A stretch of DNA of 26,674 nt from a virus: IMG/VR virus record IMGVR_UViG_3300024264_000149, positions 1 through 26,674 of that record. One strand, 5' to 3'. Positions within the stretch are counted from its first letter, which is position 1; every line of letters starts with the position of its first letter. Made by a program: the position numbers and the translations under genes. This document shows, one piece after another, positions 1,767 to 25,932 of the stretch. The notes beneath the pieces are model-generated. The model saw only the letters and a list, made by a program, of their open reading frames with translations, was not told where the DNA came from and did not search any database.

Positions 1767-2134
1767 GTCAGAGTCACATCTATATCGCCTATCGAGAAGC
1801 GAATAATATCACCAGTGACAATATCTCTACTTGTTTGCAGTCCGGTTGAAATCAACATATTTCCGCCACTTATAGCGTCATGGATCGCAGCATAGTTGAT
1901 AATGCCCCAGTCTGAGCCAGCGTTGTATTCCACGTTATTTGTGTTAGTGCCTGCCGAGGCCGTTACAGAAAAAGACGCGGATTGGCGAGCATACCCGGTC
2001 CCGGTAGTTTCGGTCCCGCCATTTAGCGGATCTCCTGCATATAAAGCCACATAGACCGTGGTAGGCGAGGTATAAGCCGTATTGGTCAAAACATGGCCCA
2101 GCAGTTTATTCTCTAGATAGGGGGTGAAGCTCAT
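1763..2134 (-). CDS. Beta-rich virion structural protein
   Basis: This 123-aa protein begins MSFTPYLENKLLGHVL and continues with VYVALYAGDPLNGGTE, GYARQSASF, then GGNMLISTGL and IRFSIGDIDVTLT. The pattern is a short alpha-helical start, then 'vyvaLy..dP.......E.....YaRq...f', and a C-terminal beta strand ending in TLT. I recognise it as a widespread phage virion protein (Gp80-like or tail/decorator type), although its exact role is not settled. It overlaps both neighbours by four bases, so the adaptor, this gene and the 94-aa gene are translationally coupled. Confidence 0.7.
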   Translation of the reverse strand: MSFTPYLENKLLGHVLTNTAYTSPTTVYVALYAGDPLNGGTETTGTGYARQSASFSVTASAGTNTNNVEYNAGSDWGIINYAAIHDAISGGNMLISTGLQTSRDIVTGDIIRFSIGDIDVTLT

Positions 2135-2787
2135 TGCATTCTCCAGTAATTTGCAGACCTGCTTGTATCGAGACCCTTAACGCGCATTCCTAGACCTGTG
2201 CCTGAGTATTTAGCGCTGTCTGACTCCTCATTCAGTCTCTTGACCGCTGCACTGTATAATTGTGCCCATACAGCCACCCTAGCGTCTTCTGCAAGGTAAG
2301 GGGCCGAGTGGAGAAGGCTACCGTATAGGTAAACGTCAGGGGCCGTAGACATCAACCAGTTGGTTGTAGCGGTGTCTGACAGTGCGGGTATTTTCTGCAG
2401 GTAAACCAACTCTGTGCTGGCATTGCTATCAGGTGAGGGGAATACCTCAAACTGGTCCTCAATGTGTCGATAGAACCGGGGCTCACCAGCAACATTGTCA
2501 CTGCTGGCTCTGCGCTCATCCATTGCTGCTGTGCTTAGAAACTGCAGGGGTCTGGTGCCATTACCCAGTATGGTAAAGCGGATAGTCTCCACCCAATCAC
2601 TTGGACGGGTCAAATACTGATCGTTCAGGGTAGCCGTTGCCCGGTTCTCCATCTGCCAGTGGCGTACATCACGGGCCATTTGAGCCTCTGCCAGACTGAT
2701 AAATGTCGGTATTACTGCGGTCAGGTCTTGACGGTTAAGAAAGTCCGCCATACTGGCCTTCAGCTCTGTGTAATTTGTTAGTGCCAT
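2131..2787 (-). CDS. Head-tail adaptor protein (SU10 adaptor-like)
   Basis: This 218-aa protein has the pattern of the phage adaptor family that docks under the portal, SU10-type, with a role like P22 gp4. It opens with NYTELKASMADFLNR and has an acidic-helix segment FISLAEAQMARDVRHWQM, then the small-domain segments YLTRPSDWVETIRF, EPRFYRHIEDQFEVFPSP and ELVYLQKIPALSD. The long C-terminal helices end in RVKGLDTSRSANYWRMQ. It is the first gene of the tail cluster. An SD (CGGAG) lies a few bases before the ATG, and a -10-like TGTTAAAAT lies upstream. Its presence agrees with the P22-type portal and SU10-type capsid elsewhere in the window. Confidence 0.8.
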   Translation of the reverse strand: MALTNYTELKASMADFLNRQDLTAVIPTFISLAEAQMARDVRHWQMENRATATLNDQYLTRPSDWVETIRFTILGNGTRPLQFLSTAAMDERRASSDNVAGEPRFYRHIEDQFEVFPSPDSNASTELVYLQKIPALSDTATTNWLMSTAPDVYLYGSLLHSAPYLAEDARVAVWAQLYSAAVKRLNEESDSAKYSGTGLGMRVKGLDTSRSANYWRMQ

Positions 2788-2905: not shown

Positions 2906-3097
2906 ATGCCATATAAAGATGTAACCTACGACAACGGCGCAACTGAGCGCTTTTACTACGATGAAACCCCCTATGAGGAGGCTAAGCGCATGGCCAGAAT
3001 AAACCGTGTTGCTAAATTCCCGTCAGCAAACCACCGCTCGTCTGTGAATCGTCAGACTTCATCTGAGAAATCACAGCAGGGGACAAAACGCCCATAA
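2906..3097 (+). CDS. Isolated plus-strand small protein (moron-like), unknown function
   Basis: This 63-aa ORF starts MPYKDVTYDNGATERFYYD. I chose the ATG at 2906 over an upstream in-frame one at 2837 because a good SD (AGGAGA, 2894-2899) sits six bases before it, and because the promoter lies downstream of 2837. It is the only plus-strand gene among the leftward late genes and has its own promoter, the usual form of a moron. The N-terminal half is acidic/aromatic and the C-terminus basic and Ser/Lys-rich. Its last 86 bases overlap the end of the 1324-aa gene on the other strand. No family is recognised. The gene could be shorter in effect if the overlap is selected for the other protein. Confidence 0.6.
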   Translation: MPYKDVTYDNGATERFYYDETPYEEAKRMARINRVAKFPSANHRSSVNRQTSSEKSQQGTKRP

Positions 3098-6000
3098 CTG
3101 TAGCTGGCAATAATGCTTTATTTTTAAGCGCGAGCCGTAGGCCTGAAATACCTTTTTCTATTAGTATTTTTCTTGCGGTTCGCACATCTTCTCTTTGTGG
3201 TAAATTCATTGCATCATCCCGGCTTATGTTTGCCAGTGCTTTGCGTTGCAATGCAGGCTCGACATTCAAGGCAAATGTAGGATTCTCATCGAGCTTGTCT
3301 AAAAATTGTTTAGTTGCCGCCCCTGAACCTTCACCCGCTTGCCATGCGCTTTCGTAGTCTTCATATCCAGTTTGTATTTTTGTCCTAGAAAATGGCGCTC
3401 CCGTTAACTCCTGTATCTCTTTACCCAAGTCTCCCTTGAGCTCTTTACCTAAAGACGAGCCAGTGCGCTCTGCACCTATGGGCGTATAAATATCGCTAAT
3501 AAAATTCACACCCTTGCCCGTATCGACTGCAAAAAAACCATAATTTTCGGCTAGTGCGCTTAGCTCTGCCATTTTCTCTGGTTTAGGTGACTGGTCAAGA
3601 TCGACTGTAATCCCGGTTCGCTCAGAAACCTTTGTCTGGCTATCAGGTATTACGCGGTGATATGCGCCTGCATTTTGCACATCAATATATGCCCGGCTCG
3701 ACTCGCCAATATCTAATAATCGCGCCTCTGTAGGTATTATTTCTCCGCCGCTTGACTGCACTAATGGCCTTGCCACCTTACCCGGATTAATTTCTAATAT
3801 TCCGGTTGATTGAGGCGTATACGCTCCCACCATCGTTTCTGTAGGTTCTGCAAGTAGTCCGCCGCTTGAATACAAATCATCAATACCCTTAGAGCTCATC
3901 CAACTGGCAACATCCTCAAACTCTTGGCGCTTATCATACGGTAGTCCTAACAGGCCCTCGAGCTGACCAGTGCCTGCGCCGGGTGCCTGCTCGTAGGTAG
4001 CATTGACAGCGTATTTATCTGCAAAGTCTCCATAGTGTGTCGCGGCATCTTCTCCAACAATATCACCCGCCCTGATCTTAGCGCCTGACCATGCCGCCGC
4101 TTGCGTGTTCAAATTATCCCAGTCTGTCCTGCCGTCTAGCTTCATTTGATTTAAACGATCTTGGATGACCAGCATGTTTTCATCCATAAAAGCGTGTTGC
4201 TGAGGGCTAAACCCTGCGTCCCACGGCTTTCCATTAGGGTGAGTGTACCCAAACGCCCTACCCTGCCAAATGTCGTTTACAGCCGTGTCTGCCTGCTCCG
4301 GGTTCCAAGACACGCTTAAATTGTCTGCAAATGGTTGCCGCTTAGGCCCCAGTCGAGAGCGCTCACCAGATAAAGCATCTTCGATCAGTGGGCTCTGGTT
4401 GCCGGGGAATCGGCCAGTTTCCACAGGTAGTCCTGCGGCTTTTTGGTTTATTCCTTTTATGGCAAACCCAAGGTTGCTGTCTACGTTGGTCCCCTGAGAG
4501 GTTATTCCAATTGCATCTGCAACACCTTGTCGCTGACCCGGCGGGCTGACTTGATCGATCCAATTGCTACTGTCCTGATACCAATCTGCGCCAGCTTGAC
4601 CTAGCTCAACATCATTTATGTATGACGCAATCATGGCCTCTACCTTCTCTGGAGTGTCTACCCCTGCAGGGCCTCCAATATACTGCCCGGTGGTTGCCAC
4701 TCTTTCTCCAGACTTGCCTACGCCCTCACGGCCTACTTTGGTCAATAGCCCATCTATTTCTGAAGCCATAGACTCTACATCAAAATCATCACCTTTTTTT
4801 GCTAATTTCTTTATAGACTTTGAAAGGCCGGGGCCAACCGCAGGTATAGCTGCCATTAGGGTAGCTGTGCCGTTGATGACCATGCCCAGCGTGTCGCCTG
4901 ACTGTTTTGCATCCTCATAGTCGGTTAGCGCAGTAAGAACGCCCACCGGAGTAAAATCTACAACGGCAGATAAATTGCGAGCCCTTCTGTAATCCTCTCT
5001 GCCTCCCCCAAGCATCTCACCTAAATAACCTTCATAGGTTTTTCTTATGCCGGGATCAACCCCCTCAATATAGCCAACCCCCGACTGCGCTATCTCTTTA
5101 TCACGCTCAGTTATGCCGAAACTATCTACGATCTGATTAACCCGGTCTTGCGGAGACTGGGAAATGCCGTAATCGCTGGCCATATATCCTGCACCCAATA
5201 ATCCCGCAACACCCGCCGCATCAGAAAGGCTGGAGGCGTCTGACCGGAAGTTAGGCAGGTCTGACCGGAAGTTAGGCAGGTCTAAGACCGCAAGATCATT
5301 AAATAGCTCATCGTCACTGCCAGCCCTAAAGATCTGCTGGCTTCTAGGCTCAAATACATCCTCTGAAAACTCCAAGGGAGTTTGCTTTAGAAAATCAGGG
5401 CTCATCCTATCTCTGGTTTCAACATTTCTTGCCTCAACCTCGCCCATCGATCCTCTGTACATTCCGTAGGGAGAGCGTGCTCCAGCCTCGCCTACTGTGT
5501 CAGCATTGAACCTGTCAGCAATTTGCTTTTCGACCTTTAGGCGCTCTAGCTCATTTAGCTCCTTGATAGACATAGAGCCCTGACCCACTTCGTTACTTTT
5601 TGCTTCAAGCTCTTGTAGTCTTTTGCTTCCAGCCGGAGTTGGTCCAACACCACCATAAAACGCATCCCTGATTTTTTCTTCTTCTTTGAAGTTTCTGGCA
5701 GAGCCCCCAGACGCAAAGCCTTCGCGGTCCTGTATGGCATGCTGCAGCTCATGCAAGACGGTTGCTCTTTGCTCAGCCGGTGAGCTCTTACCGCTAATAA
5801 CAATTACTTCAGGCTGCCACTCGCCATTACTACCTAAGTGGCCCTCTCTGTGAAACCCTGTATCTGCCGGCATATTGCCATCAACAATAAACCCGATGTC
5901 ACCTAAAGGCCCGTAAGTGCCCCTAGATCCATACTCTTCAATCTCACCATCCATATCCCTAACGGTGGGTTTTCTGCCGCCTTTCTCATATTGAGACAGC

Positions 6001-6986
6001 AATTCTGGGTCATCAACAATGTCAGCAATAGTCCCAGTGTAATACTGCCTTCCCTCTTCAATTTCAGGGATGTTGAGTTTTGTCTCAGTGTTAGGCAGCT
6101 CTGTTCTCCACTGTCCGTCAGCCCCAATCTCCCAGCCGGTACGACTGCGGATGCCTATCTCATCCACGCCCTCGTTTGCCATCTTCTTGGCCATCCCCAG
6201 CAGGTCTTGCCGTCCAGCACCAAGTTTGGATAAAGGCCCTAAAATGCTCGCATCACTCTCTTCGCTCATTCCTGCACCGAGCAGTCCCGCCATAGCGACT
6301 GGTGCGGCCTGACGTATTGATATGTTGTTATACACTGGATGCTTTTTGCCTCGCATCTCGATCTCGCCAACCTTATCACCTAAGCTTACATGGCCCTTTC
6401 TTGTTGGCTTGAGTCTAGGCTCACTGGCTTCATTAGGATACCTAGCCAGCTCCACACCTTCTGGGAAATCAGTGTTTAACGTGTAATAGTGGCCCTTTCC
6501 GTCATTGACAGAGACAATGGGGAAGCCGCCATCTGGGTCTGGATCATAGCCTTCAGGAGCCTGAGTCCATTGCCATCCTGTCTTTTTCTTTGCTAGATTT
6601 GTTTTAATTTTTCGTCCGGGTCCTTTTGCGTCAGGGATGTTTGTGGCTTGCGTAGGCGCAACCTGAAACTTTGGCTTCCCATCAGGTCCAACGCCTAGTT
6701 GTGCGCTCGACGGGTATTCTCCGGTAATGTCTTTGGGCCCATCAGGTCCCATCTCTAAGTATCTGCCTCCGGGAGTTTGCCCGAACGGCTCTAGAAAGGG
6801 CTTATATGCCTTATCAGCAGGGTCAAACATTCTCTGAGGTGCAGGGAATACGTTTCGTAGCAATCCAGCAGTACCAGCGCTTGCATCTTCAGTAATCTGG
6901 TTAACAGGTTGTGTTGCCTGTCCCAGCAAGCCAGAAACCTCTTCTACGATCTCCCTAGCCCTATCCCTAAAAAACCGCTTTGCCAT
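3012..6986 (-). CDS. Giant polyvalent-type virion protein with HExxH metallopeptidase-like domain
   Basis: This 1324-aa protein resembles the large polyvalent proteins of phages, which are thought to be packaged and delivered with DNA. Around residue 412 it has VLHELQHAIQDREGFASGG, an HExxH zinc-peptidase signature (H412, E413, H416). About 100 residues later comes GEVEARNVETRDRMSP (E518 is a candidate third ligand). This pair is typical of the polyvalent-associated LPD23-like domain. Hydrophobic segments lie near residues 228-240 (VAMAGLLGAGM), 590-602 (VAGLLGAGYMA) and 690-715, with another near the C-terminus. A seven-residue duplication, LPNFRSD twice, is encoded at 5239-5280. The start is supported by an SD (AAGGTGG) and a promoter at 7011-7024. 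Proteolytic activity and delivery into the host are inference; an internal virion or ejection role is an alternative. Confidence 0.75.
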   Translation of the reverse strand: MAKRFFRDRAREIVEEVSGLLGQATQPVNQITEDASAGTAGLLRNVFPAPQRMFDPADKAYKPFLEPFGQTPGGRYLEMGPDGPKDITGEYPSSAQLGVGPDGKPKFQVAPTQATNIPDAKGPGRKIKTNLAKKKTGWQWTQAPEGYDPDPDGGFPIVSVNDGKGHYYTLNTDFPEGVELARYPNEASEPRLKPTRKGHVSLGDKVGEIEMRGKKHPVYNNISIRQAAPVAMAGLLGAGMSEESDASILGPLSKLGAGRQDLLGMAKKMANEGVDEIGIRSRTGWEIGADGQWRTELPNTETKLNIPEIEEGRQYYTGTIADIVDDPELLSQYEKGGRKPTVRDMDGEIEEYGSRGTYGPLGDIGFIVDGNMPADTGFHREGHLGSNGEWQPEVIVISGKSSPAEQRATVLHELQHAIQDREGFASGGSARNFKEEEKIRDAFYGGVGPTPAGSKRLQELEAKSNEVGQGSMSIKELNELERLKVEKQIADRFNADTVGEAGARSPYGMYRGSMGEVEARNVETRDRMSPDFLKQTPLEFSEDVFEPRSQQIFRAGSDDELFNDLAVLDLPNFRSDLPNFRSDASSLSDAAGVAGLLGAGYMASDYGISQSPQDRVNQIVDSFGITERDKEIAQSGVGYIEGVDPGIRKTYEGYLGEMLGGGREDYRRARNLSAVVDFTPVGVLTALTDYEDAKQSGDTLGMVINGTATLMAAIPAVGPGLSKSIKKLAKKGDDFDVESMASEIDGLLTKVGREGVGKSGERVATTGQYIGGPAGVDTPEKVEAMIASYINDVELGQAGADWYQDSSNWIDQVSPPGQRQGVADAIGITSQGTNVDSNLGFAIKGINQKAAGLPVETGRFPGNQSPLIEDALSGERSRLGPKRQPFADNLSVSWNPEQADTAVNDIWQGRAFGYTHPNGKPWDAGFSPQQHAFMDENMLVIQDRLNQMKLDGRTDWDNLNTQAAAWSGAKIRAGDIVGEDAATHYGDFADKYAVNATYEQAPGAGTGQLEGLLGLPYDKRQEFEDVASWMSSKGIDDLYSSGGLLAEPTETMVGAYTPQSTGILEINPGKVARPLVQSSGGEIIPTEARLLDIGESSRAYIDVQNAGAYHRVIPDSQTKVSERTGITVDLDQSPKPEKMAELSALAENYGFFAVDTGKGVNFISDIYTPIGAERTGSSLGKELKGDLGKEIQELTGAPFSRTKIQTGYEDYESAWQAGEGSGAATKQFLDKLDENPTFALNVEPALQRKALANISRDDAMNLPQREDVRTARKILIEKGISGLRLALKNKALLPATVMGVLSPAVISQMKSDDSQTSGGLLTGI
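5239..5280 (-). repeat. Tandem 21-bp direct repeat, two copies
   Basis: The 21-base unit beginning TCTGACCGGAAGTTAGG occurs twice back to back (5239-5259 and 5260-5280). It keeps frame and duplicates LPNFRSD in the 1324-aa protein. Exact identity suggests a recent slippage event. Confidence 0.9.
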
Positions 6987-7010
6987 GGTGCCACCTTAAT
7001 TGATTGATGA

Positions 7011-7024
7011 GGCCGATTATACCA
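7011..7024 (-). promoter_or_regulatory. Extended -10 promoter upstream of the giant protein gene
   Basis: The minus strand reads TGGTATAATCGGCC, with a perfect TATAAT at 7016-7021 and TGn before it. It sits just after the large terminase stop (7029) and about 25 bases upstream of the ATG at 6986, leaving room for the SD. No -35 is apparent. The 11-mer TGGTATAATCG is shared with the promoters at 8904 and 17392. Confidence 0.6.
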
Positions 7025-8903: not shown

Positions 8904-8918
8904 GGCTCGATTATACCA
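8904..8918 (-). promoter_or_regulatory. Extended -10 promoter of the terminase operon
   Basis: The minus strand reads TGGTATAATCGAGCC directly before the ATG at 8903. TATAAT is at 8910-8915 with TGn in front, and no convincing -35 is present. Only six bases separate the -10 from the ATG. Confidence 0.65.
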
Positions 8919-10660: not shown

Positions 10661-11134
10661 TTAAATAACATCACAGCCGTGGCTCTCTTCAAGACCTTGG
10701 GCCTCAAAGAGTTTGTCACGGAGAGTAGCCTCAAGCTCAAGATAGATGAGCTCCTTATACATATCTCCAAAGCCAATGCGCTCATTGCTAATAAAATCAA
10801 CAGCATTAGCACACACAGTTTGAAAATCACCCAGAGCCGCACAGTGATTGAAGACATCTTCATTGCCCTCCACAGTGATGTCGTGCTTTACGCTGTAAAC
10901 ATCACGCCAGTAGTTGATGATTTTTTCAAAGTTCTCAGTGTCTTCGTAGAGCACTCTGATCCATGTCTTCTTCAGATCATGCAGCGCTTCAGGAAGAAAG
11001 TCCTCAATCCAGCTAGGCTTTGCCTGAAACCAGCTAAACACTGCCAGATCCTTTAGCTCATCTGACAGGCTCATCAGGTCATTATCCCAATCAGCCGGTG
11101 CCTGTGCAATTACGTTTTCAAAAATATCTTTCAT
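10661..11134 (-). CDS. Hypothetical protein, helical, Trp-rich
   Basis: I place the start at 11134 (MKDIFENVIAQAPADWDNDL), giving 157 aa, because the AAGGGGAA motif shared by this gene group lies just upstream (11139-11146). An upstream in-frame start would extend it into the preceding gene. The protein is acidic and helical with several Trp residues. I recognise no domain. It is the last gene of the accessory block that uses the AAGGGGAA leader. Confidence 0.65.
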   Translation of the reverse strand: MKDIFENVIAQAPADWDNDLMSLSDELKDLAVFSWFQAKPSWIEDFLPEALHDLKKTWIRVLYEDTENFEKIINYWRDVYSVKHDITVEGNEDVFNHCAALGDFQTVCANAVDFISNERIGFGDMYKELIYLELEATLRDKLFEAQGLEESHGCDVI

Positions 11135-11144
11135 GCCTTTCCCC

Positions 11145-11351
11145 TTAAATGTTGGTTTTGATGACGTCAACCGCGTCATCGAGATTAGCGAAATACAGAG
11201 CCTCTTCGAGAGCACCTACGCCAGCAGACATAACGTGTGACCGCACAAAATACTGCACACTCTCATCGCTGTCAGCCAGCAGCCTCTCGGCCATTAGCTG
11301 CTTGATAATTTTTACATCTACATCCAGAGTCATTTCAATTTTGATTTTCAT
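11145..11351 (-). CDS. Small hypothetical protein (cassette slot B2)
   Basis: This is a 68-aa protein, MKIKIEMTLDVDVKIIKQLM. The start at 11351 follows AAGGGGAA (11356-11363) and the hairpin block at 11373-11400; a longer frame would run back through the neighbouring gene. The N-terminus looks like a beta strand, followed by helices containing DSDESVQYFVRSHV, reminiscent of a small phage protein with unknown role. It is not similar to the gene in the equivalent position of the other cassette (11863-12144). Confidence 0.65.
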   Translation of the reverse strand: MKIKIEMTLDVDVKIIKQLMAERLLADSDESVQYFVRSHVMSAGVGALEEALYFANLDDAVDVIKTNI

Positions 11352-11372
11352 GTTTTTCCCCTTGGTTTTTGA

Positions 11373-11400
11373 TTGCCCCCCGTAGGGGGCGGCTAGATTA
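11373..11400 (-). repeat. Intercistronic hairpin block, copy 1
   Basis: The block contains GCCCCCCGTAGGGGGC (11375-11390), able to form a GC-rich hairpin. It begins at the TAA stop of the 126-aa gene. A copy with one mismatch in 28 bases is at 12159-12186. No T-run follows on either strand, so it is not a standard intrinsic terminator; an RNA-processing or mRNA-stability hairpin is possible. Confidence 0.85.
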
Positions 11401-11778
11401 AACTTCTCCTCTTGACTCACGCTCAAGCTGTAAATCGCACTCCATATACCAAGCTTGTTCACGCTCCAACTCTCTACAACGCTCGTCATAGTAAGACCAA
11501 TCTTCTCTGGTAGATTCATCTGGAAACCGCGCTATCTCCAAAGCGTCTAGAACATTAGCAACAGCATGATAAATATCGCCATCGAGGTAATCATATTCTG
11601 CCGCACCCATAGATAAACCTGCCACATCAACCATGTGTCGCTTGTCGTGATCTTCAGGATCGCGCACTGAAGCTACATAACCCTCACCGTCAAAATTAGT
11701 AATTAAACCGCACTCTGTGCCGTGGCAGTCCAGAACATCGTATGCCTCGAATGGTACATCTTTTTTGACTAATTTCAT
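11398..11778 (-). CDS. Hypothetical acidic protein (cassette slot A2)
   Basis: This 126-aa protein starts MKLVKKDVPFEAYDVLDCHG. The start at 11778 follows AAGGGGAA (11783-11790); the longer frame would begin inside the operator-like leader. The sequence is acidic, with EYDYLDGDIYHAVANVLDAL in the middle and a Glu/Arg-rich C-terminal helix. I do not recognise a family. It is bounded upstream by the duplicated leader (11792-11835) and downstream by the duplicated hairpin, which starts at its stop codon. Confidence 0.68.
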   Translation of the reverse strand: MKLVKKDVPFEAYDVLDCHGTECGLITNFDGEGYVASVRDPEDHDKRHMVDVAGLSMGAAEYDYLDGDIYHAVANVLDALEIARFPDESTREDWSYYDERCRELEREQAWYMECDLQLERESRGEV

Positions 11779-11791
11779 GTCTTTCCCCTTA

Positions 11792-11835
11792 CCTATCTCG
11801 TTAATGAGGTTACATGGTAATACAGTAACGGTTAC
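11792..11835 (-). promoter_or_regulatory. Duplicated leader with operator-like palindrome, copy A
   Basis: It holds CCTATCTCGTTAATGAGGTT (11792-11811, plus-strand reading) and, 13 bases further, the inverted repeat GTAACGGTTAC (11825-11835). The same two elements with identical 13-base spacing occur at 12437-12480. Copy A has only a weak -10 (TACCAT) where copy B has TATAAT. Confidence 0.7.
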
Positions 11836-11862
11836 CATGCAACCCCCCTAAGCAAAATAATT

Positions 11863-12144
11863 TTACCAGTCCAAACTGCAGGCCATCATGGTCCCTGCGT
11901 CTTGGTTCTCGAGGTAGAACCCATGCTTCTCCACCAGCTTCTGCAGCTTTGGGTGGAACCCGGTAGGATGCCATTCTTTCCAGTAGTCGTGCAGCGGCAT
12001 TCCATCAGGGGCACACTCTCCCTCGCAACGAAACCAGATGCGGTGCTTATCGACCTTTTCTTCGCCAGTCCATTCATCGTAGGTCACCGCGTTAGCCTTT
12101 GGAAACGCCTTGTTGATGTGCTTGCATAAAGTGATTGCTTTCAT
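11863..12144 (-). CDS. Hypothetical protein (cassette slot B1)
   Basis: This 93-aa protein starts MKAITLCKHINKAFPKANAV. AAGGGGAA (12149-12156) and the hairpin block at 12159-12186 lie directly upstream. It contains several Trp and His residues and two Cys (FRCEGECAPDG), and ends ENQDAGTMMACSLDW. No family is recognised. It occupies the same slot after the hairpin as the gene at 11145-11351, but the two proteins are unrelated by eye. Confidence 0.68.
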   Translation of the reverse strand: MKAITLCKHINKAFPKANAVTYDEWTGEEKVDKHRIWFRCEGECAPDGMPLHDYWKEWHPTGFHPKLQKLVEKHGFYLENQDAGTMMACSLDW

Positions 12145-12158
12145 ATATTTCCCCTTAG

Positions 12159-12186
12159 TTGCCCCCCGTAGGGGGCGGTTAGATTA
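12159..12186 (-). repeat. Intercistronic hairpin block, copy 2
   Basis: GCCCCCCGTAGGGGGC at 12161-12176 is identical to copy 1. The block again begins exactly at the TAA stop of the upstream gene (12184-12186) and is followed by the AAGGGGAA leader of the next gene. Confidence 0.85.
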
Positions 12187-17381: not shown

Positions 17382-17392
17382 GGCCCTTTTTT
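17366..17392 (+). terminator. Rho-independent terminator of the rightward operon
   Basis: AAAGGGC (17366-17372) pairs with GCCCTTT (17383-17389), followed by further T's to 17392. The stop of the tiny membrane peptide lies in the loop. The next promoter begins within its T-tract. Confidence 0.75.
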
Positions 17393-17406
17393 GGTATAAT
17401 CGGACC
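17392..17406 (+). promoter_or_regulatory. Extended -10 promoter, leaderless-type, for gene at 17407
   Basis: TGGTATAATCGGACC ends directly before the ATG. TATAAT is at 17395-17400, six bases from the ATG. No SD is present and no -35 is seen. It is nearly identical to the sequence before the ATG at 8903. Confidence 0.65.
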
Positions 17407-20618: not shown

Positions 20619-20852
20619 CTAATCCTTCTGCTTTTTGTCGAAAATCGCCTCGTCTGTAAACACAGTGTTGAATTGAGCTTCGATCAAGTTAAGCGCCCTG
20701 ATTATATCATGCGCGTCTTTAATAGTCTCTACTTGAGACTGGCTGTTCAGAAACACGTTGGTCTGTGCATCCCGAATGCTTTGCAAGATTTCCTGAAAGG
20801 TATCATCTCGCCATAGGTTTTTGGCCAGTGCGGCCTTATCCTTTATGTTCAA
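20619..20852 (-). CDS. Small hypothetical protein with TTG start
   Basis: This 77-aa protein lies between portal and scaffold. The start codon is TTG (20850-20852), which shares TTGA with the portal stop; GGTGG precedes it. The protein is helical and hydrophilic (IKDKAALAKNLWRDDTFQEI, then LIEAQFNTVFTDEAIFDKKQ). It may be an assembly chaperone or portal-associated factor, but no family is recognised. Confidence 0.68.
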   Translation of the reverse strand: MNIKDKAALAKNLWRDDTFQEILQSIRDAQTNVFLNSQSQVETIKDAHDIIRALNLIEAQFNTVFTDEAIFDKKQKD

Positions 20853-22948: not shown

Positions 22949-24595
22949 TTATTGTAGCCTCTGTTCTTTATCTTCAAGCAGTCCTGCCTGATACAGTGCA
23001 TTATATACCTCTGGGGTGCGATACGGGGCTGTGATTTGTGCGGCTTTATTGCCTCCAAACTGCTGAAGACCTCCCATCGCCTTGCCTAAAGCGTGTGAAA
23101 CCTCGCCAGCCACTCTGGGAGAAGATGCCGCACCCATCAACACTGCTTGCGGCAATTGTCCTGTAAGCGCCATGCTTGATGTTAGCGCTGGCTGCGTAGC
23201 AGACTGCAATCCCCTCGGCATCACTGTAGACATTGTTTGCCCAGCAACGGCAGGCATTATTTGTCCGCCAGACGCCTCATCGAGAATCTGGCCAAGGCGC
23301 AGGCGCTCTCCATAGTTAGTGTTTACGTTGTTGCGCATCAAAGACGTTAGCTTTCGCAAGGCCGTGTCAGCAGAAGCCTTGTTACCCAGACTTAGCGCCC
23401 TTTCCATTTCTCTTAATAAATCCGCAGATTTGGAATAATTATCCATAGCCTTGGCATAGTCAGGAGCCTGCTGCGCTACAGAATTTTTAATAGAGTCATA
23501 TACCTGTTTGACAGCGGCATAGGCGGTCCTGTTTTCGGCTGGTAGCCCATCTAGAATTTCACCAACAGATTGCTTGAGTTGATCTAACCCTTCTGGCGTG
23601 TGAAATTGCTCTGGGTCAAGCTGTCTCCACTGCTGAACCTTATCGTCTACAGCCTGCAATGCTTTTGCTACAGACTCGTTTTTAATTTGGCCCTTATATG
23701 CAGCAAACTTGTTAAAGGAATCGCTGAGCGCATTAGCTGTGTCATCAAAACTAAGCACTGTTTTGTCTTTCGATACGCCTGCCATGTTTTGTCTGTAGGT
23801 TTGTGACGCTTGAGCTCTAATGCTTGCCAGAGCAGCACGGGCCGTGTCAACAATATCGGTAGGGTTAGCTGTGCCGCGCATAGAAGATGTAAACAAAGCG
23901 CTCGCCTCACCTCCTTCCTGCCCTGCTCTAAACGCCTGCTTAATCGGTTCAGGACCAACGCCAGTAAGCCCGCCAGAAAGTCCTGTAACAGCGCTGGCTG
24001 CCACAGGGGCGATTGTTCGAGTGGTAGCTGATAGAGGCTCAATTGCCGCCCCTACGCTAGACATTTTTTCTCCAACTTTAGACAATGCTGGAACCTTTGA
24101 TACGACCGCTCCCCCTCCAGTAAGCAGGGTTGCCGCGTCAGCTAGTATTGCGGCAGGATCTTCTGCTACAGCCTTCTTAAATCCCTCCTCGCTGCCGTAC
24201 TGTCGAACATAATGCTGTGCTACTGCGTCATACACCTCATCACCGCGCTCGTCCCTCCCAAGGGCTTCCACTACACTGTCAGGCACTGCCCTTTGCACTA
24301 TCCCGCGGGCTAGTTTTTGCAGCCCAGTAAGGGTATCTATTGGGCTGGCCACGGCCTCTACCAAGCCTTCTCCAAGGTTATAAACAGATCCCGGAAAACT
24401 AGCCACTCCTGACATTAAGGCCTGTGGCCAAGTTCTTTCTGGCTCTACCTCAGCATCGGGGGTGACTGCCGGTACTGGCTGGCTAGATCGCTGAACCTCC
24501 AGCGCCTTCAGGTAAGCATCTTGATTTGAAAGCCTAACGTCAGAGGGAACGATAACCGTCTCGCCATTAATAATTACATCGTACTCATATGCCAT
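22949..24595 (-). CDS. Probable internal virion/DNA-ejection protein, 548 aa
   Basis: The protein starts MAYEYDVIINGETVIVPSDV. This N-terminal domain resembles those of large internal proteins in marine short-tailed phages. It has long Ala/Gln/Lys helices (residues about 240-410, with several coiled segments). Hydrophobic stretches include AAILADAATLLTGGGAVVS and PVAASAVTGLSGGLTG. No enzyme motif is visible. The position between another large internal candidate and the portal, and the helical, membrane-compatible composition, suggest ejection with DNA. The gene overlaps the preceding one by one base (TAATG). Function is inferred, not motif-based. Confidence 0.65.
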   Translation of the reverse strand: MAYEYDVIINGETVIVPSDVRLSNQDAYLKALEVQRSSQPVPAVTPDAEVEPERTWPQALMSGVASFPGSVYNLGEGLVEAVASPIDTLTGLQKLARGIVQRAVPDSVVEALGRDERGDEVYDAVAQHYVRQYGSEEGFKKAVAEDPAAILADAATLLTGGGAVVSKVPALSKVGEKMSSVGAAIEPLSATTRTIAPVAASAVTGLSGGLTGVGPEPIKQAFRAGQEGGEASALFTSSMRGTANPTDIVDTARAALASIRAQASQTYRQNMAGVSKDKTVLSFDDTANALSDSFNKFAAYKGQIKNESVAKALQAVDDKVQQWRQLDPEQFHTPEGLDQLKQSVGEILDGLPAENRTAYAAVKQVYDSIKNSVAQQAPDYAKAMDNYSKSADLLREMERALSLGNKASADTALRKLTSLMRNNVNTNYGERLRLGQILDEASGGQIMPAVAGQTMSTVMPRGLQSATQPALTSSMALTGQLPQAVLMGAASSPRVAGEVSHALGKAMGGLQQFGGNKAAQITAPYRTPEVYNALYQAGLLEDKEQRLQ

Positions 24596-25932
24596 TATGG
24601 AACAATCCTTTCTGTTACTTGTGTAGATCCGCTGCGCATTGCACTAAGGGCTTCAGATGCTGCGTATTTCTTAGCCTCGGCTTTATCCACTAAAACTCTG
24701 AGCTCATCTCTCGCCTCTTTCATAGCCGCAATATAATCATCGTCACTTAACGTGAACGCCGCTAATCGGTCAATTGCCGCTTGGGCAGCCGCACCTTCTC
24801 TTTCAGTAATCTGTCCACCCCCTTTCAACTGCTCAAATGCTCGCAAAAACGATTTTGCAGATAAATTTTTGGCAAGGGATTCACCAAGCACCTGATTAGG
24901 CGTGACAGCGGGCAACCTGCCCTGTATTGGCCCGACGTAGGCTTTAACTGCGGCAAGGCTTTGCGGGTCATCTAAGATGCGATTTATAGCGTCAAATTGA
25001 TTTCCTAGCACATCAACAGTCTTCTGAGCGCTTCGCTCATCCTTAATGATGTTTTCAATTTCTACAGTCCCAAACTTTTTCTCGCCTGCTACTGCACTAA
25101 TATTTTTAGGGATGCTGCCTACAATTACGCCCTGATCATTCATCAACCCAGTTGTGGTTCCCATATCCACTTCGGTTAAGCCTGCTGAGACCGTTGCACC
25201 TTCTGGCAAATCAATTGGCTTTATGTTTCCGTAATTAGACGTTACATAGGGTATTACATTGCCCCCTTCAGTATAGGTTCGCACAGTAGTACCAAAGGTT
25301 TCAGCGCCCTTTTGTCCTGCAATTGGCTTAATCTCGCCAGTAACAGTATTTACTGAGTACAAGCTTTCGTCAATGAAGCCTTCCCGTCCTTTTTCTGCAA
25401 GTTGAGCGCCTGTCATTGTCACAAAGGTATCTTTGGGAGCTCGCAACGTAGATGTAACGTATGCTTGATAAATAGCGCTTGCGTTATCTGGGTTTGCCTC
25501 AATCATATCCGCCACTTGCCGGGCTGTCGGATCATCAGATCTTCGCAGCGCCTCTACGGTCTGATTAGCTTGATTCCTCACGGTTCGCAGAGCCATCAGG
25601 TCACTAGCACGCTTCTGTAGCTGCGCATTAGGGTTAAGGGTCATCTGGTTAAATGCAGCAGCCAATCCAGCCATAGTGGCCGGGTCCTTTAGGCCGCCCC
25701 TTATCCGGTCCATCATTCCCGGCTTCTCAGCAGGGGGTCGTGCATTCAGTGCAGGCTGAGGTGTCATCATAGGCTGTGGAGCAGCTCCTGATCCCATAGG
25801 GGATTGACCGCCAAAATTGATCCCCTGCAGTAGACCTTCTGCAGATACCGGGACAGAGTTCTGAGCATTTTTATAACGCTTTTGTCTCTCTAGCGCAATC
25901 ATTGTCTCTACATCGAAAATACCGTTAGCCAT
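24595..25932 (-). CDS. Probable internal virion/DNA-ejection protein, 445 aa
   Basis: This 445-aa, Ala/Gln-rich protein includes MMDRIRGGLKDPATMAGLAA then ALRTVRNQANQTVEALRRSD, and QVADMIEANPDNASAIYQAYV. The C-terminal segment AKSFLRAFEQLKGGGQITER and EGAAAQAAIDRLAAFTLSDDD is a motif I recall from internal proteins of marine phages. Predicted to be largely helical with a beta-rich middle (DTFVTMTGAQLAEKGREGFI). Start ATG at 25932. It is one of three consecutive probable ejection genes before the portal. Confidence 0.6.
   Translation of the reverse strand: MANGIFDVETMIALERQKRYKNAQNSVPVSAEGLLQGINFGGQSPMGSGAAPQPMMTPQPALNARPPAEKPGMMDRIRGGLKDPATMAGLAAAFNQMTLNPNAQLQKRASDLMALRTVRNQANQTVEALRRSDDPTARQVADMIEANPDNASAIYQAYVTSTLRAPKDTFVTMTGAQLAEKGREGFIDESLYSVNTVTGEIKPIAGQKGAETFGTTVRTYTEGGNVIPYVTSNYGNIKPIDLPEGATVSAGLTEVDMGTTTGLMNDQGVIVGSIPKNISAVAGEKKFGTVEIENIIKDERSAQKTVDVLGNQFDAINRILDDPQSLAAVKAYVGPIQGRLPAVTPNQVLGESLAKNLSAKSFLRAFEQLKGGGQITEREGAAAQAAIDRLAAFTLSDDDYIAAMKEARDELRVLVDKAEAKKYAASEALSAMRSGSTQVTERIVP

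What the first reader, a model, noticed from the sequence alone, without database searches (positions are those of the whole stretch)
3012..6986. 1324-aa virion-type protein with HExxH metallopeptidase-like centre
Seen: HELQH at residues 412-416 followed by GEVEARN near 516-522, plus recurring hydrophobic GLLGAG segments and a long region of no recognised fold. Known: this pair occurs in polyvalent-associated (LPD23-like) domains of phage mega-proteins. Inference: an enzyme delivered with DNA that cleaves a host target early in infection. The region after residue 750 may contain further, undescribed domains.
Basis: partly seen in the sequence, partly recalled or inferred. Interest (0 to 1): 0.6.

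Follow-up and report, generated by a model that had tools for sequence, protein, structure and literature searches.

The report
Swappable phage cargo protein, two enzymes
An uncultured marine-type phage carries one large protein, probably delivered with its DNA, that joins a metal-dependent protease-like module to a part resembling DNA-repair glycosylases, and near-identical phages swap whole pieces of this protein, which suggests a changeable infection toolkit.

Summary
In detail: window 3012-6986, MINUS strand, encodes 1324 aa with HELQH at 412-416 and GEVEARN at 515-521. The key residues of both motifs are invariant in 60 diverse relatives, and Pfam LPD23 lies just upstream (263-304, 31.9 bits, cut-off 27). 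From about residue 740 on, the protein carries a module that also exists alone (634-917 aa) in dozens of viral contigs. Its AlphaFold model (pLDDT >90) best matches an 8-oxoguanine DNA glycosylase (Z 9.2, 173 residues). A divergent family member passes DUF7178, whose stand-alone phage members are annotated as DNA glycosylases. The Lys (K882) and Asp (D905) expected of an HhH-GPD enzyme are invariant in 38 sequences. Zincin-type and glycosylase-type proteins are alternative alleles of one slot between TerL and a head-tail adaptor, in phages whose flanks are 98% identical; the window carries a fusion of both. Swap junctions lie near recurring GLL motifs. I judge it a polyvalent, virion-delivered multi-enzyme protein of known kind with a domain not named in the founding paper (PMC5512222). 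Catalysis, substrate and injection are inferred, not shown.

The parts
3012..6986 (-). whole gene, 1324 aa, N-type and C-type modules fused
7013..7024 (-). extended -10 promoter-like element TGGTATAATCGG, kept in front of the slot gene in most alleles of this clade
6991..6997 (-). Shine-Dalgarno-like AAGGTGG
   Evidence: sequence
6288..6986 (-). residues 1-233: N-terminal region, mostly low-confidence, some beta strands; residues 33-257 shared as a block between different alleles
6858..6866 (-). residues 41-43, GLL motif near swap junction at residue 33
6243..6287 (-). residues 234-248, GLLGAGMSEESDASI joint; swap junctions at 241, 248, 257
6075..6200 (-). residues 263-304, LPD23 (PF18838)
   Evidence: E 1.1e-7, 31.9 bits against cut-off 27
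5307..5906 (-). residues 361-560, zincin-like metallopeptidase domain, pLDDT mostly >90
5739..5753 (-). residues 412-416, HELQH
5424..5444 (-). residues 515-521, GEVEARN; E516 or E518 proposed third metal ligand
5187..5204 (-). residues 595-600, GLLGAG joint between N-type and C-type modules
4035..4646 (-). residues 781-984, DUF7178-type, HhH-GPD DNA-glycosylase-like domain
4341..4343 (-). K882, invariant in 38 homologues, third residue of the helix after the hairpin (proposed catalytic Lys)
4272..4274 (-). D905, invariant in 38 homologues, just before a helix (proposed catalytic Asp)
3339..4019 (-). residues 990-1216, alpha/beta domain, ferredoxin-like by structure comparison
3117..3320 (-). 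residues 1223-1290, conserved C-terminal helices
7029..8318 (-). terminase large subunit, upstream boundary of the slot
2131..2787 (-). SU10-type head-tail adaptor / virion structural protein (phrog_2941), downstream boundary of the slot

Best explanation
The gene is the occupant of a promoter-headed, swappable slot in the late region of a family of podovirus-like phages. It encodes a polyvalent protein, that is, several unrelated enzyme domains in one chain, packaged in or with the head and delivered with the DNA. The order is: variable N-terminal region; LPD23 plus zincin metallopeptidase (HELQH, third ligand in GEVEAR); DUF7178-type HhH-GPD DNA-glycosylase-like domain (K882, D905); ferredoxin-like domain; C-terminal helices. 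Proposed action: after delivery the zincin releases or processes modules, most likely near the GLLGAG joints, and the glycosylase-like domain acts on DNA (base removal and possibly AP lyase) in the first minutes of infection. Shown here: module boundaries, conservation, allele swapping, gene context. Predicted: folds and active-site residues. Inferred: delivery, self-processing, DNA substrate.
For: LPD23 passes its cut-off. Zincin residues are invariant in 60 sequences, with IrrE/PprI as best relatives by profile (E 0.017) and by structure (Z 5.9 and 5.4). C-module: from its motifs I wrote down 'HhH-GPD glycosylase' before any structure search; the model then gave TmOgg as top chain, Z 9.2, 173 of 208 residues, rmsd 3.7, above the rows for other parts. 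K882 and D905 are invariant over 38 sequences down to 28% identity. Family member L080 passes DUF7178 (36.7 bits, cut-off 27) and 8 of 38 members match it at E<0.1. The C-module matches stand-alone DUF7178 phage proteins (hhalign E 4.6e-5), which three phage records call glycosylase. Slot: window and L023 are 97.6-97.8% identical in DNA on both sides but share only residues 241-577 of the gene; L034 (glycosylase type) and L107 (zincin type) have flanks 98.0 and 98.4% identical. Other alleles carry ART-PolyVal and a methyltransferase-like domain. Virion link: H66 gp60 and late-gene position.
Against: No virion proteome for this group; the window is a metagenomic virus record. Z 9.2 lies within what unrelated mostly helical models can reach (up to 13 or so, tool note), and Foldseek itself gave no PDB match below E 0.001. 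No HhH-GPD (PF00730) profile match was listed for any member, and hhalign against E. coli EndoIII is not significant (E 0.098, although in the expected Lys/Asp register). MAFFT placed the EndoIII Asp on D902, not D905. The window protein itself does not reach DUF7178; only relatives do. No coordinates were available to measure metal-site or Lys-Asp geometry.
Confidence: 0.55

Rival explanations
1. One reading: the zincin is the effector and cuts a host protein early in infection; the rest of the chain only carries or anchors it.
For: Complete zincin signature under strong constraint; closest folds are IrrE/PprI, which cleave repressors (own knowledge). Iyer et al. list host targets as one possibility.
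Against: The C-module is found without any zincin in the same slot of 98%-identical phages and is itself highly conserved, so it is not a mere carrier. Polyvalent peptidases are proposed mainly for self-processing.
Confidence: 0.2
2. Structural or ejection protein: the C-module keeps a glycosylase fold only as a DNA-binding scaffold in the head or ejection channel and is catalytically dead.
For: Usually beside terminase, adaptor or portal genes where these are on the contig. Fold matches show no function.
Against: K882 and D905, the catalytic pair of the fold, are among the few invariant residues. The protein is replaced entirely by unrelated alleles in near-identical phages, unusual for an essential structural part. 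The window has separate candidate ejection proteins at 22949-25932, one weakly matching phrog_2534.
Confidence: 0.18
3. Virion-carried base-excision repair: the glycosylase-like domain repairs oxidised or UV-damaged bases in the incoming phage genome.
For: Top structural match is an 8-oxoguanine DNA glycosylase.
Against: It does not explain why the domain is swapped for a zincin-type allele, or why related slots hold ART or methyltransferase-like domains, nor why it is fused to a peptidase module here.
Confidence: 0.15

Closest known systems
Polyvalent proteins of phages (Iyer et al. 2017, PMC5512222), zincin MPTase class
   Same: Large multidomain protein beside late virion genes; zincin with an insert between the HExxH helix and the Glu helix; LPD domain; domain shuffling
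   Different: Adds a DUF7178/HhH-GPD-like module; the words glycosylase, endonuclease III and DUF7178 do not occur in the main text of that paper. Allele exchange between 98%-identical phages is shown directly.
Pseudomonas phage F116/H66 giant proteins (H66 gp60, 3787 aa) and phage AF gp16
   Same: LPD23 plus HELQH/HEVQH...GEVEARN, 28-31% identity; H66 gp60 recorded in the virion by MS
   Different: Different partner domains; no similarity found outside the LPD23-zincin module
Stand-alone phage DUF7178 proteins annotated as DNA glycosylase (S-CRES3 gp63, DroogsArmy gp83, Shagrat gp113)
   Same: Motifs G..WY..A, S[PQ]....N, GPK...F..N, D.[HW], QA..W; hhalign E 4.6e-5
   Different: About 200 aa, stand-alone, no ferredoxin-like second domain
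HhH-GPD DNA glycosylases (TmOgg 3n0u; EndoIII)
   Same: Predicted fold over 173 residues; Lys after the hairpin and Asp before a helix
   Different: Sequence identity 9%; no PF00730 match; no activity known
Brig1 antiphage glycosylase (PMC11078745)
   Same: A DNA glycosylase in phage-bacteria conflict
   Different: Brig1 is a host defence that attacks phage DNA; this is phage-encoded. Common ancestry was not tested.

Membership tests
Polyvalent protein (Iyer et al. 2017) | two or more domains of disparate activity in one chain | tested here: met
   LPD23 and zincin by sequence; DNA-glycosylase-like module by homologues and structure; sibling alleles carry ART-PolyVal and methyltransferase-like domains
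Polyvalent protein (Iyer et al. 2017) | encoded among late virion genes | tested here: met
   between TerL and SU10-type adaptor
Polyvalent protein (Iyer et al. 2017) | delivered into the host with DNA | not testable with these tools
   only by analogy: H66 gp60 recorded in the virion by MS
LPD23 (PF18838) | score above Pfam cut-off 27 bits | tested here: met
   31.9 bits; 34-39 bits in close relatives
zincin metallopeptidase | HExxH plus downstream Glu, conserved | tested here: met
   invariant in 60 sequences
zincin metallopeptidase | zincin fold around the motif | tested here: inconclusive
   helix 403-422 bears HELQH, helix 514-526 bears the Glu; IrrE Z 5.9, PprI Z 5.4, below a safe level
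Peptidase_M78 / DUF6782 | score above Pfam cut-off | tested here: not met
   20.4 against 22 and 18.3 against 27 bits
DUF7178 (PF23802) | profile match of the window protein or its family | tested here: inconclusive
   window protein itself: none; relative L080 36.7 bits against 27, and 8 of 38 members match at E<0.1; hhalign E 4.6e-5 to stand-alone members
HhH-GPD DNA glycosylase | fold | tested here: inconclusive
   TmOgg Z 9.2, 173 of 208 residues; helical models can reach such Z by chance
HhH-GPD DNA glycosylase | catalytic Asp (and Lys in bifunctional members) in place | tested here: met
   K882 and D905 invariant in 38 and placed as in the HhH-GPD fold by secondary structure; spatial geometry not measured
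HhH-GPD DNA glycosylase | PF00730 sequence profile | tested here: not met
   not listed for any of 38 or 21 members; so described as 'works like', not filed as a member
Phage SAM lyase | fold of the second C-terminal domain | tested here: inconclusive
   6zm9 Z 7.0, Foldseek prob 0.69, TM 0.51, but RND-pump ferredoxin-like domains score equally

The most novel reading that the evidence does not exclude
Phages deliver a DNA glycosylase as a weapon, the mirror image of antiphage glycosylases such as Brig1. Injected with the genome and freed by its own zincin, it strips bases from host, prophage or competitor DNA, and phages rotate it with ART, methyltransferase and peptidase alleles in one slot.
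Probability: 0.15. Interest if true: 0.85.

Novelty: new variant of a known kind. Interest (0 to 1): 0.58.

Why it matters
It gives a large family of uncharacterised phage proteins (the C-module; no Pfam match in most members, no PHROG match in those tested, no cultured phage found) a testable activity and two residues to mutate. It points to DNA glycosylase-like domains as a class of polyvalent cargo not named in the founding paper. The slot, where 98%-identical phages exchange zincin-type and glycosylase-type proteins behind a shared promoter-like element, is a natural experiment: whatever the alleles do, they are interchangeable for the phage, which suggests that they target the host rather than build the particle.

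Tried and rejected
Sequence search of the whole protein against PDB and NCBIfam: nothing useful. C-module in 50,697 isolated phages by tblastn with three divergent stand-alone members: none. C-module in 84,980 bacterial and archaeal genomes: none confirmed. Direct hhalign of the C-module with one DUF7178 protein, and of DUF7178 with EndoIII: not significant; a better alignment of stand-alone members gave E 4.6e-5 to the C-module but still only E 0.098 to EndoIII. Fetching diverse EndoIII homologues gave only close ones. SAM-lyase identity for the second C-terminal domain was considered and not adopted: AcrB-type domains match as well. N-type and C-type HMMs against the Octadecabacter virus DB2 slot protein gp6: no match; it has weak ART-PolyVal instead. 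Assembly chimera of two genes rejected: the fusion recurs in independent contigs, L002-L006. Literature: no paper naming LPD23 in this sense or DUF7178; one paper combines 'polyvalent protein' and 'DNA glycosylase' (not read in detail).
Full report
CHECK OF THE OBSERVATION. The ORF at 3012-6986 is on the minus strand and codes for 1324 aa; the plus strand of the same interval is full of stops. HELQH lies at 412-416, GEVEARN at 515-521 and GLLGAG at 234 and 595. The gene starts 42 bases after the terminase large-subunit gene, with AAGGTGG 4 nt before the ATG. The same full-length gene occurs in independent metagenomic contigs (L002-L005 at 77-96% identity; L006 cut by the contig end), so it is not an assembly artefact. 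The window is a virus record of 26,674 bases.

N-TERMINAL HALF. Pfam LPD23 matches 263-304 above its cut-off; M78 and DUF6782 peptidase models match 391-433 below theirs. They form one conserved module: it aligns with Pseudomonas phages AF, F116 and H66, and more than 460 IMG/VR loci encode it. In 60 diverse sequences H412, E413, Q415, H416, Q419, E422, G515, E516, E518 and R525 are invariant. AlphaFold (A4, 60 sequences) gives pLDDT above 90 for most of 246-330 and 361-560; HELQH is on helix 403-422 and GEVEAR on helix 514-526, with a helical insert between them. Iyer et al. describe this arrangement for polyvalent zincins. The best structural neighbours are IrrE (Z 5.9, 100 residues, rmsd 3.8) and PprI (Z 5.4), which is weak; the profile search also ranks IrrE first, at E 0.017.

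C-TERMINAL HALF. Residues from about 740 to 1316 occur as a separate 634-917 aa protein in dozens of viral contigs, at 28-69% identity. The window's module has no Pfam match, tested members have no significant PHROG match, and nothing was found in isolated phages or cellular genomes. Alignment of 38 sequences leaves very few invariant residues, among them S830, K882, D905, R910, H931, Q962, A963 and W966 (numbering plus 600). The order of motifs reminded me of HhH-GPD glycosylases, and I recorded that as a prediction before searching structures. The model of residues 601-1324 is confident (pLDDT above 90 over most of 765-1290). Its best PDB match by VIA-align is TmOgg, an 8-oxoguanine DNA glycosylase: Z 9.2, 173 of 208 residues, rmsd 3.7, model residues 781-984. 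In the model K882 is the third residue of the helix after a hairpin, and D905 immediately precedes a helix, the positions of the catalytic pair in this fold (own knowledge of EndoIII K120/D138). Viral predicted structures with E below 0.001 are giant phage proteins, some named for LPD, RelA/SpoT or pyrophosphatase domains.

DUF7178 LINK. One divergent family member (L080) scores 36.7 bits to Pfam DUF7178 (cut-off 27), and 8 of 38 members match it at E below 0.1. DUF7178 also forms the N-terminal part of a zincin-type slot protein (L121, E 5e-29). Stand-alone DUF7178 proteins in isolated phages are annotated 'N-glycosylase/DNA lyase', 'glycosylase' and 'DNA glycosylase'. The C-module aligns with them by hhalign at E 4.6e-5. 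The link from DUF7178 to EndoIII by sequence alone is not significant (E 0.098), although the only hit aligned GPK...IDGHAYCI with EndoIII GRKT...VDTHIFRV, the expected register. I therefore say 'glycosylase-like' and do not file it as an HhH-GPD member. The domain after it (990-1216) is alpha/beta, ferredoxin-like; phage SAM lyase (Z 7.0) and RND pump domains (up to Z 7.4) match equally, so its function is open.

THE SLOT. In relatives the place between TerL and the SU10-type adaptor holds a zincin-type protein of about 900-1490 aa, or a glycosylase-type protein, or, in the window and L002-L006, the fusion of the two. In more distant phages the glycosylase-type gene lies next to the portal gene. 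At the DNA level the window and L023 are 97.6% identical up to 2824 and 97.8% from 7007, yet inside the gene they share only 5259-6266, that is residues 241-577. L034 (glycosylase type, 745 aa) and L107 (zincin type, 927 aa) have flanks 98.0 and 98.4% identical. L034 and L105 share their first 30 or so residues and then diverge into different alleles. L003 and L004 are 97.5 and 95.8% identical on either side of the LPD23-zincin cassette, which alone is replaced. An extended -10-like element TG[GA]TATAATCGG stays in front of the gene in most sampled alleles of this clade; it occurs at 7013-7024 and, with at most one mismatch, at three other places in the window (0.2 expected).

GLL JOINTS. Swap junctions lie at 33, 241-257 and 577-588, each within 18 residues of such a motif; for three junctions a uniform model gives p about 0.008. 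Inference: they are inter-module linkers, possibly the sites where the zincin cuts.

OTHER ALLELES. Slot proteins of relatives carry ART-PolyVal plus a methyltransferase-like domain (L120), weak methyltransferase-like matches (L023, L114) and DUF7178 (L121). In the closest isolate found by portal, Octadecabacter virus DB2, the slot protein gp6 has weak ART-PolyVal. This is what Iyer et al. call polyvalent proteins.

VIRION. No direct evidence for this protein. By analogy, H66 gp60, which contains the same LPD23-zincin module, is recorded as verified in the virion by mass spectrometry. The context is late and structural.

MECHANISM AND CONFIDENCE. Architecture as a zincin module plus a glycosylase-like module: about 0.8. 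Delivery with DNA: about 0.7. Zincin acting mainly on the chain itself rather than on a host target: about 0.55. Glycosylase-like domain catalytically active on DNA: about 0.6. Which DNA and which base is unknown. The ease with which alleles replace one another argues against an essential structural role and for host-directed or defence-directed functions, but this is inference.

NOVELTY. A polyvalent phage protein is a known kind. The module not named in the founding paper, the fusion of two alternative alleles, and the direct record of swapping make it a new variant.

Noticed in passing
window 2131-2787; L003 7276-9174, L004 8623-11133, L116 4480-7296, L117 8395-12129: The head-tail adaptor gene is single (218 aa) in the window, but in sibling phages it has an N-terminal tandem array of about 102-aa mini-adaptor repeats: about 4, 6, 7 and 10 copies judged from length (633, 837, 939, 1245 aa). 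Such copy-number variation in an adaptor is odd.
   Followed up: partly
window 7013-7024 (-), 8907-8918 (-), 17392-17403 (+), 20698-20709 (-): Four near-identical extended -10 promoter-like elements TG[GA]TATAATCGG (at most one mismatch), 0.2 expected by chance; one heads the slot gene in most alleles of the clade sampled.
   Followed up: partly
L097 2752-4233 (Octadecabacter Antarctic DB virus 2 gp6): The slot of the closest isolate found by portal holds a protein with a weak ART-PolyVal match, a ParB-like stretch by eye, and GLL motifs.
   Followed up: partly
window 24595-25932: 445-aa protein with a weak match to phrog_2534 'released from the phage upon host infection' (E 4e-6); a candidate ejection protein upstream of the portal gene.
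   Followed up: no
L008 28-3447, residues 75-245 of its slot protein: The N-terminal part of another slot allele matches phrog_3170 (unknown function, E 3e-19): a further cargo module of unknown role.
   Followed up: no
L076 3215-5694: The glycosylase-type gene is split into two overlapping ORFs (508 and 341 aa), a frameshift or sequencing error.
   Followed up: no
window 11122-12157 and 11373-11400 / 12159-12186: Repeated segments between small genes, including a 28-nt near-perfect repeat with a hairpin GCCCCCCGTAGGGGGC, possibly terminators or regulatory sites.
   Followed up: no
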